Origin: Natrialba chahannaoensis JCM 10990
GTDB lineage: Archaea; Halobacteriota; Halobacteria; Halobacteriales; Natrialbaceae
Direction of reading: 5' to 3'
DNA length: 36,765 bases
NCBI RefSeq assembly: GCF_000337135.1
Contig: NZ_AOIN01000040.1
Span: 402-37,166, forward strand
The notes below the pieces were generated by a model. The model worked only from the letters and a program-made list of their open reading frames with translations, did not search any database and had not been told where the DNA came from. The position numbers and the translations under genes are program-made. Shown piece after piece: positions 24,191 to 30,067 of the stretch (positions are counted from its first letter, which is position 1; every line of letters starts with the position of its first letter).

Positions 24191-24210
24191 CTATTTCCGA
24201 TCCTGACTGC

Positions 24211-24270
24211 ATCCATATCTGCATCAGCATCTGCATCTACGTCTCCATCTCCATCTGTATCTCTATCACT
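24211..24270. repeat. Hexanucleotide microsatellite (ATCTGC-like, about 10 units)
   Basis: Sixty bases made of ten 6-nt units of the type ATCTGC, ATCAGC, ATCTAC, GTCTCC, ATCTCC, ATCTCT. It is imperfect and lies in non-coding DNA between hyuB and the small-TM gene. Confidence 0.75.
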
Positions 24271-24297
24271 CGAGTCCCGCTGTACTCGAGGTACTCC

Positions 24298-24358
24298 GTA
24301 TCTGCTACTCCTCGTCTGCTACCCTCGTCTGCTACCCTCGTCTGGCACTCCTCGTCTA
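24298..24358. repeat. Tandem 13-14 bp repeats running into the hyuB stop codon
   Basis: CTCGTCTGCTACC at 24311-24323 and 24324-24336 is exact. Decayed units precede (24298-24310) and follow (24337-24350 and 24351-24358). The hyuB stop (CTA, 24356-24358) lies in the last unit, the same arrangement as at the Nudix gene at 13085. Confidence 0.75.
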
Positions 24359-25975
24359 CTTCTCCTCTTGCTCACCGTGTCCACCACCGCCGGGCGTCCG
24401 CACGGTGACTGTCGTTCCCGCGTCGACATCGACCGTCGTCTTCGCGGGCACCGGCTCGCCATCGAGCAGGTTCTCACCCGTCGCACCGCCCTCGCCGCCA
24501 GCGACGCCCGCTGGTGCGTGGCGGCGGCGCTCGGTCAGCAGCGAGACCGTCGCGTCCGCCTCGACCGTGACGGTGCGCTCCAGTCCCTCGCCGCCGCGGA
24601 ACCGGCCGCGGCCGCCGCTGCCCTCGCGCAGTGCGTAGCGTTCGACCCGGAGTGGGTACTCCGTCTCGAGTGACTCGACCGGCGTGTTGAGCGTGTTGGT
24701 CATTCCGACCTGCACGCCGTCCATACCGTCGCAGTCGGCACGAGCGCCGAAGCCGCCTGCGATGGTCTCGTAGTAGGTGAACGAGCCATCTCGCGCGCCG
24801 ATGGTTAGGTTGTTCATCGTGCCCTGGCCCTGCGCCGGGACGCGGTCGGGCGCGGCCTCGGCGAACGCAGTGAAGACCACGTCGGTCACGCGCTGGCTGG
24901 TCTCGACGTTGCCGCCGACGACTGCAGCCGGCGGCTCAGGGTTGAGCAACGTTCCTTTTGGTGCGTGAACGCTCACGGGCTCGTAACAGCCGTGATTCGG
25001 GGGAATCTCAGGATCGGTGAGACAGCGCACGACGAAGTAGACGGCACTTGTCGCAACTGCGCGCGGAGCGTTGAGGTTGCCCGCCAGCTGCGCTGCAGTG
25101 CCCGAGAAGTCGACATCGACCGACGCGCCGTCGATGGTCACGGCGACGCTGATCTCGATATCGTCGTCCGTTACGCCGTCGCCCTCCAGATAGTCCGTCG
25201 CCTCGTAGGTGCCGTCGGGTAACGCCGCGAGTTCGTCCTCGATCCGCTCGCGCGAGTAGTCGATGACGGCGTCGAAGCCCGACACCACCGTCTCGCGGCC
25301 GTGTTCGTCGAACAGGTCTCGCAAGCGTTCCGCGGCTCGCTCGTTCGCCGCGCGCTGGGCTCGCAAATCAGCCCGGCGCTCGCGGGCGTTTCGCACGTTC
25401 GCCAACAGCAGCGAGCGCACCTCCTCGCGGACCTCGCCGCCGGCCACCAGCCGCGTCGGCGGTATTCGAAGTCCCTCCTGGTAGATCTCCTCCGCGCCCG
25501 CGGGCATGCTGCCGGGCGTCATCCCACCAACGTCGGCGTGGTGGGCGCGCGAGACCGCATAGCCGACGATTTTGCCCTCGACGGCAAGCGTGGAGACCAT
25601 CGTCACATCCGGGAGATGTGTCCCGCCCTCGAACGGGTCGTTGAGCACGAAGACATCGCCAGGTTCTGGGTCGAACTCGAGTACGGCGTCGACGGCGGCG
25701 GGCATTGCGCCGAGATGGACGGGGATGTGTTCGGCCTGGGCGATCATTCGACCCTCGGCGTCGAAGAGTGCGGTCGAGCAGTCGCGGCGTTCTTTGATGT
25801 TGGGGGAGTAGGCCCCGCGAATCAGTGTTTGGCCCATCTCCTCGGCGATGCCGGCGAGCTGGTTGCGCAGGACTTCGAGGGTGACGGGGTCGATACGTTG
25901 GTCTGTGGTCGTGGGAGATTCGTCAGTCGAGCTGTTGGCTGCTGAGTCGTGGTTTGTCGAATCGTGATCAGTCAT
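24356..25975 (-). CDS. hyuB: Hydantoinase/5-oxoprolinase subunit B
   Basis: A 539-residue protein of the HyuB family. Its blocks are complete: [20 protein letters not shown], then [20 protein letters not shown], then [13 protein letters not shown], then [20 protein letters not shown], and the C-terminal [20 protein letters not shown]. HyuA and HyuB together hydrolyse a cyclic amide (hydantoin, 5-oxoproline or N-methylhydantoin) with ATP. The N-terminal 25 residues are a disordered Ser/Thr/Asp tail. The start overlaps the hyuA stop by four bases (ATGA). The substrate cannot be read from sequence. Confidence 0.93.
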
Positions 25976-28086
25976 TCCTCACTCACCTCCGGACGCGTCA
26001 TCGCAAGCGTTCCATCCGGCAGGATCTCACCCGTCCACCCGGGCGGGATCACCGTCGTACTCTCTGCCTGTTCGAGCACCGCCGGACCGTCGACCCTCGC
26101 GCCGGGTGCGACTCGGTCACGCTCGTAGACTGTCGCCTCGCTCTGTTCTTCGTCCGCGCCGGGGAAATGGGCGGTTCGGGTGCCGACGACCGCATCACCG
26201 CTCCCCTCGTGGCGAACGGTCGGCTCTGCGCCGGGAACGGTCGCCGTCGTGCGCAGATTGACCACTTCGATTGTCTCGTCCAGCGCGTACCCGTAGGTGC
26301 GCTTGTGGGCCTCGTGGAAGCGGTCGGCGACCGCGTCGGCGTCGAACGTCCCCGCCGCGCCCACGGGAACGGTCAACTCGAAACTCTGTCCGGCGTACCG
26401 ACAGTCCGCCGCCCGTTCGAGTTGGGCCGCGTCCGGATCAGAGACATCTGCCAGCACGTCTTCGACCAGATCGTCGTACATCTCGCTGATCGTCGCTGGC
26501 GAGGCAGACTCGAGTGCAATACCCACAGTCCGAACGGCGTCGTGACTCTCGTCGGCGGCGAGGAGGCCGAACGCCGAGAGGACGCCGCCGGGGCGGGGCA
26601 CGAGCACGCGCTCGACTGAGAGCGCGTCGGCCAGCGCCGCGGCGTGCATCGGCCCTGCGCCGCCGAAGGCGACGAGTTCGAACGCGCGGGGGTCGTGGCC
26701 GCGCTCGACCGTGACGCTGCGGATCGTTCGGGTCATCGTCGCGTTCGCCACGCGGTAGACGCCGCGGGCGGCCTCGAGTGCGCCGTCCAGACCAGCCTCT
26801 TCGGCAAGACTCGCCAGGGCGTCGTGGGCCGCCTCGACATCGAGAGTCATCTCGCCGCCGAGCGCGGTTTCGGGGCCGATGTAGCCGAGGACGACGTTGG
26901 CGTCGGTCACCGTCGGTCGCGTGCCGCCGCGGCCGTAGCAGGCGGGACCGGGCTGTGCGCCCGACGATTCCGGGCCGACGCGGAGTGCGCCGCCGGCGTC
27001 GACCCAGGCGATCGAGCCGCCGCCGGCTCCGACGGTGTTCACGTCGACCATCGGCGTCCGGATTGGGAGGCCGTCGATTTCGGCGTCGGTCGTCCGCTCG
27101 GCGCGGCCGTCCCGGACGAGGCTCACGTCGCTCGAGGTGCCGCCCATGTCGAAGGTGACGAGCCCTTCGGGTGTCTCGCGGTCTGTCTCTGCAGGTTCGT
27201 CGCTGTCGCCGCTGCCACTGGAACCGCCGACGGTCGCCCCCGCGCCGACGACACCCGCGGCCGGACCGGAGAGTGTCGTCGTAACGGCGTGTTCCCGGAC
27301 CGTTTCCGGTGCTGCGGTGCCGCCGTTCGCCTGCATAATCTGCGGTTCGGGAATCCCCGCGTCGTCGGCCTGCTCGACGAGTCGGCCGATGTAGCGGTCG
27401 ATCGCGGGGCGGACGTAGGCGTCGACCGTGGTCGTCGACGTGCGCTCGAACTCGCGGAACTCGGCAAGCACCTCGTGGGAGGCCGACACCGGAACCGAGA
27501 GCTCCTCGCGGAGCATTTCGGCGACCTGGCGCTCGTTCGACGGGTCGGCGTAGGCGTGCAGGAGCGAGACCGTGACGGCCCCGACATCCGCTTCGCGGAG
27601 TTTCGCTGCGAGGTCACGGACCTCGTCGGGGTCGACCGGCCGTTCAGCGCCCTCGGCCGTCGTCCGCTCGTCGACCTCGAACCGCCGTTCGCGGGGGACG
27701 AGCGGCGTCGGTTTCTCGGCGTCGAGGTCGTAGAGCGAGGGCCGGTCTTGGCGACCGATCTCGAGTACGTCGCGAAAGCCGGCGGTGGTGACGAGTGCCG
27801 TCGCCGCGCCGTCGCGTTCGAGGAGGGCGTTGACCGAGACGGTCATCGCGTGGTTGAACTCGTCGATTTCGCCGGGGTCGATGCCCGCGTCGGCGCAGGC
27901 TTTCTCGATGCCTTCGAGGACGCCGACGTGCTGGGGGTCCGTGCTCGGCACCTTTGCGGTGACGAGACCGTCAGCGACGGAGAGGGCGACGTCGGTGAAG
28001 GTACCGCCGACATCGACGCCGATGCGGGTATTCGAATCGTGTTTCGTTGTATCCTGCTGTGTCGCGTGTGTGTTCATTTCGTTCAC
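25972..28086 (-). CDS. hyuA: Hydantoinase/5-oxoprolinase subunit A
   Basis: A 704-residue ATPase subunit. The actin-like phosphate loop RIGVDVGGTFTDVALSV lies at about residues 21-37. Further conserved blocks are FNHAMTVSVNALLERDGAAT, VTFDMGGTSSDVSLVRDG, and the Gly-rich GAGGGSIAWVDAGGALRVGP then ESSGAQPGPACYGRGG, where substrate and metal bind in the family. It activates the cyclic amide with ATP for ring opening by the complex with HyuB. Two ATGs, at 28086 and 28077, are possible. It starts 20 bp after the transporter stop, so all three genes are likely cotranscribed. Confidence 0.93.
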   Translation of the reverse strand: MNEMNTHATQQDTTKHDSNTRIGVDVGGTFTDVALSVADGLVTAKVPSTDPQHVGVLEGIEKACADAGIDPGEIDEFNHAMTVSVNALLERDGAATALVTTAGFRDVLEIGRQDRPSLYDLDAEKPTPLVPRERRFEVDERTTAEGAERPVDPDEVRDLAAKLREADVGAVTVSLLHAYADPSNERQVAEMLREELSVPVSASHEVLAEFREFERTSTTTVDAYVRPAIDRYIGRLVEQADDAGIPEPQIMQANGGTAAPETVREHAVTTTLSGPAAGVVGAGATVGGSSGSGDSDEPAETDRETPEGLVTFDMGGTSSDVSLVRDGRAERTTDAEIDGLPIRTPMVDVNTVGAGGGSIAWVDAGGALRVGPESSGAQPGPACYGRGGTRPTVTDANVVLGYIGPETALGGEMTLDVEAAHDALASLAEEAGLDGALEAARGVYRVANATMTRTIRSVTVERGHDPRAFELVAFGGAGPMHAAALADALSVERVLVPRPGGVLSAFGLLAADESHDAVRTVGIALESASPATISEMYDDLVEDVLADVSDPDAAQLERAADCRYAGQSFELTVPVGAAGTFDADAVADRFHEAHKRTYGYALDETIEVVNLRTTATVPGAEPTVRHEGSGDAVVGTRTAHFPGADEEQSEATVYERDRVAPGARVDGPAVLEQAESTTVIPPGWTGEILPDGTLAMTRPEVSEE

Positions 28087-28106
28087 GTTTGTCTCTGTGT
28101 CGTGTC

Positions 28107-29312
28107 TTAGAGGACGATGATATCGTACAGTGTCTGCAGACCGATTCCGATGACAACGAGCGTCACTGCGCCGCCGAGGATGTTCTGAAGCGTGCTGTTG
28201 GTATGCTCGCCGAGCAGTTCCTCGTTGTTCATCGCATAGATGAGGAAGGCCGCGAGGATCGGGAGCAGGAGTCCGTTCGCGACCTGTGCGAAGACGATCA
28301 CCTGGACAGGATCGTAGTCGAGCGCCGAGAAGGCGATTCCCGTTCCGAGGATCGTCATCCAGATGAGCCGAAAGCGCGTCGAGGTGAGGTCTCGTTCCCA
28401 GCCGAGCGCGCCGGCGGTGGCGTACGCGCCTGCCAGCGGTGCGCTCATCGCACTCGTGAACCCGGCTGCAAAGAGACCGATCGCGAAGAACCAGAGCGCG
28501 TAGCCGCCGAAGACTGGCTCGAGTTGGTCCGCCATCTCGCCGACGTTTCCGATCGAGGTGCCTTCGGGGAACACTGCAGCCGCCGTGACGACGATCGAGG
28601 TCGTGATGAGGCCGCCGATAACGACCATCCCGATCGTGTCAGTGCGACACTCGGCGAGGTCGCTCGCGCCGTCCCATCGCTCCTGGACGGTGCTCGCGTG
28701 CAGGAACAGGTTGTAGCCGACGACCGTGGTGCCGATGAGTCCGGCGATCAGGTAGGCCGAGCCGTCGGGAATCGTCGGGACGAGGCCCGCCGAGAGCGAT
28801 CCGATGTCCGGTCGCACGATGGCCGCATTGAGCACGAACGAGAGTCCCATGACGATCACGAGTCCGATAAAGACGTGCTCGATCAGTTTGTAGTTCCCCG
28901 TCCAGAGCAAGCCGGCGGCGACAAGACCGATGAGCGGCCCCCAGACGTTCTCGCTGATGTCGGTAACCGTGGCGAGCCCTGTCGCACCGCCGACGATGTT
29001 GCCTGTCTGGAACGCCGCCGTTCCGATACCAATCGCACTGACGACTAGCACGACGACACTCGTCTTGACTAGCGGGTTCGAGAACTCGCTTCGAAATGCT
29101 TCGCCCAATCCTTCCTGCGTGATCAGTCCGAACCGCGCGCTCATCTCCTGGAGCACGATCGTCGCGAAAATCGAGAAGACGATCGTCCACACGAGTACAT
29201 ATGCGTATTCGGCACCGAGCACGCTCGCAGTCGTCACGGTACCTGGTCCAATGAACGCCGCGGCGACGAGTGCACCTGGTCCGATCGATCGTATGCGGTC
29301 AATGACTCCCAT
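28107..29312 (-). CDS. Nramp-like transporter lacking the metal-binding residues
   Basis: A 401-residue membrane protein with about 11 TM helices in LeuT-type arrangement. It aligns with Nramp: TM1 IGPGALVAAAFIGPGTVTTA and TM6 GTTVVGYNLFLHASTVQERW. In metal-transporting Nramps TM1 has DPGN and TM6 has an A-x-x-MPH block. Here DPGN is GPGT (residues 22-25) and MPH is VGY (198-200), with Thr at the Ala position; all the metal ligands are replaced. It sits directly ahead of hyuA and hyuB, so I infer an organic substrate. The start MGVIDRIRS at 29312 is preferred; ATG 29327 is possible. No other transporter in the window could serve HyuAB. Confidence 0.85.
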   Translation of the reverse strand: MGVIDRIRSIGPGALVAAAFIGPGTVTTASVLGAEYAYVLVWTIVFSIFATIVLQEMSARFGLITQEGLGEAFRSEFSNPLVKTSVVVLVVSAIGIGTAAFQTGNIVGGATGLATVTDISENVWGPLIGLVAAGLLWTGNYKLIEHVFIGLVIVMGLSFVLNAAIVRPDIGSLSAGLVPTIPDGSAYLIAGLIGTTVVGYNLFLHASTVQERWDGASDLAECRTDTIGMVVIGGLITTSIVVTAAAVFPEGTSIGNVGEMADQLEPVFGGYALWFFAIGLFAAGFTSAMSAPLAGAYATAGALGWERDLTSTRFRLIWMTILGTGIAFSALDYDPVQVIVFAQVANGLLLPILAAFLIYAMNNEELLGEHTNSTLQNILGGAVTLVVIGIGLQTLYDIIVL

Positions 29313-29503
29313 GATGATTGTCCACATGCATCGCTCGGAGAAACCACCAAAAGCGTTGTTAAGAATTACACATACGTCTCGAGGCCAGGAAATTTGGAGT
29401 ATGAACGAGTATGAATCCGTATGAACACCGCCGCTGTGGGAGACAGAACGCCCCCATTCTGAGCCACGTTCATTCTCGAGTCTAGTCAGGCTACTCTCCC
29501 GGC

Positions 29504-30067
29504 TCACGCCGCGTCAGGTGCCGTATCGCGGTCTTCTTCGGTGATGATCGCCTTCGACACGCCGCGTTCGACCTCGAGTTCAGTCCCGATTCGAACCGTG
29601 CTCCGTTCGATAAATCGCGTCATGAACCAGCAGATCGACTCCGAGGGAAAAACCACATGATACATTCCCTCTTCTTCCCCTCGAACCTCGAGAAAGCCAC
29701 AGAACGACAGCCACTCGAGTAACTCCCCAACGCCGGAAAACCGATCCGCGTACTCGCGGGCGTGATAGTCGGAGACGCGGTCTGCGGCGTCGACGAACTC
29801 GGGGTCTGGGTCGCCACCGGCGTAGCTGTACTCCAGAAAGGCGTGCAAGAAGTCGACATCGAGTAGGACGTGTTCGCCCGAGGCGAGCATGCGGTAGTAC
29901 TGTTCTAAGTTATCACTCGGCTGGCGCTCTGCGGCGTCGAAGTTGGCCGCGTAGAAGGCGAGCGCGCGCCGGACGACCTCGCTCTGCCCGGCGTTCGTCT
30001 CGGCGACCAGTGTCTCGAGGGCGGTCTGGGCCTCATTGTCGAGTGAGACCGTTACGCGCTGTGTCAT
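29504..30067 (-). CDS. Ribbon-helix-helix protein, haloarchaeal type
   Basis: A 187-residue protein. Residues 1-45 form a ribbon-helix-helix domain: MTQRVTVSLDNEAQTALETL then VAETNAGQSEVVRRALAFYA. The rest is a helical regulatory-looking domain (EYYRMLASGEHVLLDVDFLH, then GVGELLEWLSFCGFLEVRGE, then ESICWFMTRFIERSTVRIGT). RHH proteins bind DNA as dimers. It is encoded just upstream of the transporter-hyu operon on the same strand, with 191 bp between, so it is a candidate regulator of it. The family is common in haloarchaea and the partner unknown. A GTATAG box lies at 30091-30096. Confidence 0.85.
   Translation of the reverse strand: MTQRVTVSLDNEAQTALETLVAETNAGQSEVVRRALAFYAANFDAAERQPSDNLEQYYRMLASGEHVLLDVDFLHAFLEYSYAGGDPDPEFVDAADRVSDYHAREYADRFSGVGELLEWLSFCGFLEVRGEEEGMYHVVFPSESICWFMTRFIERSTVRIGTELEVERGVSKAIITEEDRDTAPDAA

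What the first reader, a model, noticed from the sequence alone, without database searches (positions are those of the whole stretch)
24356..29312. Nramp-like transporter without metal ligands in one operon with hydantoinase/5-oxoprolinase genes
The transporter has the Nramp fold and TM6 context (NLFLHAS-x-VQ), but DPGN has become GPGT and the MPH block VGY, so all canonical Mn/Fe ligands are gone. It is 20 bp ahead of hyuA, and hyuA overlaps hyuB. From established knowledge, the Nramp-family gene ycsG of Bacillus subtilis also lies in an operon with 5-oxoprolinase genes. The inference is that this branch carries a cyclic amide such as 5-oxoproline or hydantoin rather than a metal. The RHH gene upstream is a candidate regulator.
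Basis: partly seen in the sequence, partly recalled or inferred. Interest (0 to 1): 0.65.

Follow-up and report, generated by a model that had tools for sequence, protein, structure and literature searches.

The report
Metal-transporter cousin for cyclic amides
A haloarchaeal gene that looks like a manganese/iron transporter has lost every metal-holding residue, and across archaea and bacteria its relatives sit beside either of two unrelated ATP-driven enzymes that open cyclic amides such as 5-oxoproline, so it most likely imports such a nutrient rather than a metal.

Summary
The operon reads RHH regulator, Nramp-like transporter, hyuA, hyuB. The transporter has GPGT for DPGN and VGY for MPH, and the TM3 glutamate is Asn, so all canonical metal ligands are gone. 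It is not an oddity of one genome. It belongs to a well-supported clade (98/94) of haloarchaeal and bacterial Nramp-related proteins. In Halobacteria 56 of 58 loci have hyuAB on the same strand. In Bacteroidota 36 of 41 have pxpABC, the unrelated bacterial 5-oxoprolinase. In Pseudomonadota 3 of 9 have HyuAB and 1 has PxpABC. Eight Nramp-family loci outside the clade have neither. One transporter clade paired with two non-homologous ATP-dependent cyclic-amide hydrolases points to uptake of a cyclic amide, most likely 5-oxoproline. The RHH regulator gains support from three TTCATAC repeats with exact 10-bp spacing before the transporter promoter, conserved across haloarchaea and found nowhere else in this genome. 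Transport was not tested. HyuAB often occurs without the transporter. Structure prediction failed.

The parts
29504..30067 (-). RHH (CopG-type) DNA-binding protein, 187 aa, candidate local regulator
   Evidence: Pfam RHH_1 E=1.2e-5; an ortholog precedes the transporter in 54 of 58 haloarchaeal loci
29399..29425 (-). Operator candidate: three TTCATAC repeats at 29425-29419, 29415-29409 and 29405-29399, exact 10-bp period
   Evidence: Conserved at the same distance in most haloarchaeal loci: 160 hits against 20.7 in shuffles; the double repeat occurs only here in the 4.3-Mb genome with up to 1 mismatch; 0 of 100 shuffles of the window reach it
29348..29366 (-). Conserved promoter-like block TTCTTAACAACGCTTTTGG just upstream of the transporter start
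   Evidence: Consensus TCT.AACAAC..TTTT in the alignment of 24 haloarchaeal intergenic regions; promoter role inferred
28107..29312 (-). Nramp-related transporter, 401 aa, proposed 5-oxoproline / cyclic-amide importer
   Evidence: Pfam Nramp E=3e-94; clade and linkage
29238..29249 (-). TM1 motif GPGT (residues 22-25) in place of DPGN
28998..29000 (-). TM3 Asn105 in place of the conserved Glu (DraNramp E134)
28713..28721 (-). TM6 motif VGY (residues 198-200) in place of MPH
25972..28086 (-). hyuA, ATP-binding subunit of an ATP-dependent cyclic-amide hydrolase; DVGGTFTD at residue 25, DMGGTSSD at 313, GAQPGP at 376
   Evidence: Pfam, solved relatives, motif positions
24356..25975 (-). hyuB, metal-site subunit; tetrad Asp65, His120, Asp123, His145
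   Evidence: Pfam, alignment with CapB and N-methylhydantoinase, positions

Best explanation
The gene encodes a secondary transporter with the Nramp (LeuT-type) fold whose central site no longer holds a metal and instead takes up a small cyclic amide, most likely 5-oxo-L-proline. HyuAB in the same operon then opens the ring with ATP to give glutamate. The RHH protein represses or tunes the operon by binding the TTCATAC tandem repeats. Shown: the gene order, the motifs, the clade, the repeated linkage with HyuAB or PxpABC, and the conserved repeats. Inferred: that the protein transports, the direction, the substrate, that HyuAB here is a 5-oxoprolinase, and that the RHH protein binds the repeats. 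A plausible structural reading, from general knowledge of APC-superfamily carriers, is that GPGT in the broken part of TM1 offers backbone amides to a carboxylate, as GxG-type TM1 motifs do in amino-acid carriers.
For: Metal site: D to G22, N to T25, M to V198, H to Y200, TM3 E to N105, fixed or nearly so in 58 haloarchaeal and 50 bacterial members. Clade: haloarchaeal plus bacterial members form one clade with support 98/94, tree built without the motif columns. Linkage: HyuAB same strand 56/58 Halobacteria; PxpABC same strand 36/41 Bacteroidota plus 1 HyuAB on the opposite strand; 3 HyuAB and 1 PxpABC of 9 Pseudomonadota; none at eight Nramp-family loci outside the clade. The partner type changes at least 3 times on the tree, so the constant is the chemistry, not one gene. 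An unlinked Bacteroidota member (L201) is next to gamma-glutamyltransferase. HyuA and HyuB keep the ATP motifs and metal tetrad described for caprolactamase in PMC8453981. This genome has no PxpA, so HyuAB could be its 5-oxoprolinase. Precedent from another Nramp-related group: C. glutamicum PxpT is needed for growth on 5-oxoproline, with complementation (PMC13274462).
Against: No uptake or binding data for any member of this clade. HyuAB-type enzymes also act on hydantoins, caprolactam and ketones, so the family does not fix the substrate. Haloarchaeal members have VGY where bacterial ones have VPY, which could mean a different ligand. In more than half of the haloarchaeal operons a maleate-isomerase/Amdase-like gene follows hyuB (34 of 58), whose role is unexplained; the window lacks it. 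Four Bacteroidota and five Pseudomonadota members have no ring-opening enzyme nearby. HyuAB orthologs occur without the transporter in about 85 of 139 genomes. YcsG and MumT, which lack the same ligands, are reported to raise cellular Mn (PMC10448178, PMC5050338).
Confidence: 0.68

Rival explanations
1. The transporter carries another cyclic amide or imide in haloarchaea, such as hydantoin or N-methylhydantoin, and HyuAB is an ATP-dependent hydantoinase; the Amdase-like gene present in many loci would be a racemase for that substrate.
For: The best solved relative of HyuA and HyuB is named N-methylhydantoinase; 34 of 58 haloarchaeal loci carry an Amdase/Asp-Glu racemase superfamily gene; TM6 is VGY in haloarchaea and VPY in bacteria.
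Against: The same transporter clade pairs with PxpABC, known only as a 5-oxoprolinase, in 37 bacterial loci. The HyuB ortholog is in 139 of 194 haloarchaeal genomes, mostly without the transporter, which fits repair of endogenous 5-oxoproline better than use of a rare nutrient.
Confidence: 0.18
2. It is still a divalent-metal importer (Mn2+ or another) with an altered site, supplying the metal that HyuB or PxpABC needs; the operon couples metal supply to the enzyme.
For: B. subtilis YcsG (renamed MntG) raised cellular Mn and is MntR-regulated (PMC10448178); A. baumannii MumT affects Mn accumulation (PMC5050338); HyuB has a metal tetrad; EleNRMT shows that a non-canonical site can move Mg2+.
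Against: All side-chain ligands including the TM3 Glu are lost here, whereas EleNRMT keeps the TM1 Asp and TM3 Glu. Canonical and NRMT-type relatives show no such linkage. PxpT is required for growth on 5-oxoproline (PMC13274462). YcsG and MumT are in another clade.
Confidence: 0.1
3. It exports or exchanges a product such as glutamate, or carries an unrelated solute, and its place beside ring-opening enzymes reflects inheritance of an operon rather than a shared substrate.
For: Some members lie away from any ring-opening enzyme.
Against: Independent pairing with two non-homologous enzymes in three phyla is hard to explain by inheritance.
Confidence: 0.04

Closest known systems
PxpT / YcsG (MntG) / MumT group of Nramp-related proteins ('G-motif 3' of PMC12873925)
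   Same: Nramp fold, Gly for the TM1 Asp, Tyr for the TM6 His, Asn for the TM3 Glu, next to pxpABC; PxpT is required for growth on 5-oxoproline
   Different: Separate clade (100/100 against 98/94), GPGF instead of GPGT, GGY instead of V(P/G)Y; phmmer with the window protein does not find MumT at 1e-3; sisterhood not rejected (AU p 0.32) and not shown
Canonical Nramp/MntH Mn and Fe transporters
   Same: Pfam Nramp over its full length; 1e-38 to the solved chain 10ky, probably BfraNramp
   Different: All DPGN, MPH and TM3 Glu ligands replaced
EleNRMT, Nramp-related Mg2+ transporter
   Same: Nramp-related, non-canonical site, TM10 Asn-Gly
   Different: Keeps the TM1 Asp (NDAGG) and TM3 Glu, has Trp at the His position; falls with the canonical group in the tree
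CapAB caprolactamase / HyuAB / 5-oxoprolinase family
   Same: HyuA ATP motifs, HyuB Asp-His-Asp-His tetrad, two subunits
   Different: 38% identity to CapA, far below the CapA and CapB equivalog cut-offs; substrate untested

Membership tests
Pfam Nramp superfamily (PF01566) | Full-length profile match above the gathering score | tested here: met
   316 bits against cut-off 29.8, profile 1-356 of 357
Canonical Nramp/SLC11 metal transporter | DPGN in TM1 | tested here: not met
   GPGT, invariant in the clade
Canonical Nramp/SLC11 metal transporter | MPH in TM6 | tested here: not met
   VGY (VPY in bacterial members)
Canonical Nramp/SLC11 metal transporter | TM3 Glu (DraNramp E134) | tested here: not met
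   Asn105
Canonical Nramp/SLC11 metal transporter | Divalent metal transport | not testable with these tools
   needs uptake assay
YcsG/PxpT/MumT 5-oxoproline-linked group | Falls inside that clade | tested here: not met
   separate clades in the tree; being sister groups is not rejected
YcsG/PxpT/MumT 5-oxoproline-linked group | Gly/Tyr/Asn at the three ligand sites | tested here: met
YcsG/PxpT/MumT 5-oxoproline-linked group | Required for growth on 5-oxoproline | not testable with these tools
   needs mutant
ATP-dependent HyuAB / lactamase family | ATP motifs in A, Asp-His-Asp-His metal tetrad in B | tested here: met
   motifs as in PMC8453981
ATP-dependent 5-oxoprolinase (HyuAB/OXP type) | Hydrolyses 5-oxoproline | not testable with these tools
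   needs enzyme assay
RHH (CopG) regulators with tandem-repeat operators | RHH domain and helically phased short repeats nearby | tested here: met
   RHH_1 and 10-bp-spaced repeats; binding not tested

The most novel reading that the evidence does not exclude
A whole clade of Nramp-fold proteins, spread over Halobacteria, Bacteroidota and Pseudomonadota and not the YcsG/PxpT group, has become organic cyclic-amide importers that pair interchangeably with two non-homologous 5-oxoprolinases. With the YcsG/PxpT group this would be a second or a deeper change from metal to organic substrate (or the reverse) within Nramp, and the GPG...Y...N set would be its signature.
Probability: 0.55. Interest if true: 0.75.

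Novelty: new variant of a known kind. Interest (0 to 1): 0.62.

Why it matters
Most Nramp-related groups are described as entirely uncharacterised (PMC12873925), and the one contested case is called an Mn importer by one group (PMC10448178) and a 5-oxoproline importer by another (PMC13274462). A separate clade lacking the same ligands, paired with either of two unrelated cyclic-amide-opening enzymes, bears on that dispute and names proteins in which it can be tested. It would also show how a metal site and an organic-acid site can interconvert in one fold, and many 'divalent metal transporter' annotations would be wrong.

Tried and rejected
Structure prediction: only two sequences were admissible; mean pLDDT 33.5, so no fold search or pocket analysis was made. 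Using YcsG from memory: rejected; the group was represented by MumT and four pxpABC-linked plasmid copies. A codon-restricted pattern scan of genome contigs gave five loci; only the Haloarcula one carries the gene at the pattern, but a Gillisia genome reached this way has a true member elsewhere. CapA Lys40 as a marker of oxoprolinase against lactamase: dropped, since in the alignment position 40 is not a lysine. NCBIfam names (caprolactamase, MntH): all below their cut-offs except Nramp_1, so not informative. A motif count of the HyuB metal tetrad over other loci used truncated hits and a strict pattern and is not relied on. Plasmid search for PxpA neighbours gave several loci without an Nramp gene.

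Full report
Observation. The transporter stop and hyuA start are 20 bp apart and hyuA overlaps hyuB by 4 bp. Pfam confirms Nramp, the three hydantoinase-A domains, Hydantoinase_B and RHH_1. TM1 carries GPGT and TM6 VGYNLFLHAS. Column by column, the canonical D, N, M and H are G22, T25, V198 and Y200, and the TM3 Glu is N105.

Haloarchaeal relatives. Of 194 haloarchaeal genomes, 55 carry an ortholog at 53% identity or more besides weaker paralogs; the next best matches drop to about 32%. With two plasmid copies (Halocatena marina, Haloarcula litorea) and the window itself this gives 58 loci. HyuAB lies on the same strand in 56 of 58, the RHH gene in 54, and a gene of the Amdase / maleate-isomerase family after hyuB in 34. 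The exceptions are L068 (no HyuAB) and L094 (transporter plus the Amdase-like gene only). Copies on plasmids suggest that the operon moves.

Bacterial relatives. A profile of 17 haloarchaeal orthologs (A1) found nothing close elsewhere in the archaeal phylum but 41 strong matches in 345 Bacteroidota genomes and 9 in 349 Pseudomonadota genomes. All carry GPGT and, in TM6, V(V/I)PYN(L/I)FL(H/Y). In Bacteroidota 36 of 41 are followed on the same strand by pxpA, pxpB, pxpC; one faces a fused HyuA-HyuB gene. In Pseudomonadota three are next to HyuAB and one to PxpABC. More distant members L216, L220 and L221 also lie by HyuAB. The eight Nramp-family loci outside the clade (L095-L099, L223-L225) have neither. 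L201, without either enzyme, is followed by gamma-glutamyltransferase. PxpABC and HyuAB share no homology (established knowledge) but both open cyclic amides with ATP, so the shared feature is the chemistry.

Tree. With the two motif regions left out, haloarchaeal and bacterial members form one clade (98/94), the haloarchaeal part 100/97, the YcsG/MumT group another (100/100), canonical Nramps another (100/100). Forcing this clade and the YcsG group together is not rejected (AU p 0.317), so whether the GPG...Y...N set arose once or twice is open. The enzyme partner changes at least three times along the tree.

Literature. B. subtilis YcsG lies in the pxp operon; one study renames it MntG as an Mn importer and notes possible polar effects in the earlier 5-oxoproline work (PMC10448178). 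C. glutamicum PxpT, 50% identical to YcsG, is needed for growth on 5-oxoproline, with complementation, though direct uptake was not measured in the passages I read (PMC13274462). MumT of A. baumannii is described as an Mn importer (PMC5050338), yet has MGPGF and VGGY, no canonical ligand, and is followed by pxpA. A January 2026 preprint places MntG in a 'G-motif 3' group and calls the other Nramp-related groups, apart from NRMT-like, entirely uncharacterised (PMC12873925). No paper found in the held library names the clade described here.

The enzyme. HyuA keeps DVGGTFTD, DMGGTSSD and GAQPGP, and HyuB keeps Asp65, His120, Asp123 and His145, the motifs defined for caprolactamase in PMC8453981. 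The haloarchaeal HyuA is closer to that of the transporter-linked L220 (47%) than to the second HyuA of its own genome (39%). The genome has no PxpA. The HyuB ortholog is in about 139 of 194 haloarchaeal genomes (my count), far more than the transporter; in sister genomes hyuAB sits at the same place without RHH and transporter (L228, L229). Transporter and HyuB ortholog co-occur (54 of 139 against 1 of 55, Fisher 1e-8, not corrected for kinship). My reading (inference): HyuAB is a housekeeping enzyme that repairs endogenous 5-oxoproline, and the RHH-transporter pair adds use of the external compound.

Regulation. Upstream of the transporter lie three TTCATAC repeats at exact 10-bp spacing, conserved at the same distance in most haloarchaeal loci (160 hits against 20.7 in shuffles). 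The double repeat occurs only here in the 4.3-Mb genome with up to one mismatch. Short helically phased repeats are what RHH dimers bind side by side (general knowledge). This makes the RHH protein a dedicated local regulator, by inference.

Limits. No transport, enzyme or binding data exist here. The structure prediction failed. Samples of bacterial phyla were limited to two. The role of the Amdase-like gene is unknown. Counts of loci are not independent events.

Noticed in passing
L106:5713-6963: A. baumannii MumT, described as an Mn importer, has MGPGF in TM1 and VGGY in TM6, so no canonical metal ligand, and is followed by pxpA and other pxp-like genes.
   Followed up: partly
L228:4796-8625, L229:4804-8573: In two genomes of the window's genus hyuAB lies at the same place between the Nudix/IF-2B gene and cofE, but RHH and transporter are absent: a clean presence/absence of the two-gene module.
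   Followed up: partly
L217:3974-8191, L218:3703-8170: A side branch of the clade with VVTY in TM6 lies directly after genes of a 2-oxoacid:ferredoxin oxidoreductase (two subunits) in two genomes; possibly another organic-acid substrate.
   Followed up: partly
L201:7001-10055: An unlinked Bacteroidota member is followed by gamma-glutamyltransferase, a source of 5-oxoproline precursors.
   Followed up: partly
L094:5162-7200: A haloarchaeal ortholog (53%) followed by the Amdase-like gene but not by HyuAB; that genome's HyuAB lies elsewhere (G077:C1:2776847).
   Followed up: partly
L095-L099, L103, L224, L225: Haloarchaea hold other Nramp-related groups without metal motifs (GPGS with TTFSIAAAxYQ; FGSGS with ALWPNFFLE), function unknown.
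   Followed up: no
L002, L003: The window's genome has two other Nramp-family genes; L002 also lacks DPGN and MPH (AGPAT, GAVHITLLTMQ); L003 was not examined.
   Followed up: no
24205-24355: Low-complexity purine-rich repeats (gacgaggngtagca, gatgcagatg) between hyuB and the next small membrane-protein gene.
   Followed up: no
L034:10944-11690: Amdase/EutA-like gene after hyuB in 34 of 58 haloarchaeal operons, absent from the window; own-genome search for the family found nothing but its control did not ring either.
   Followed up: partly
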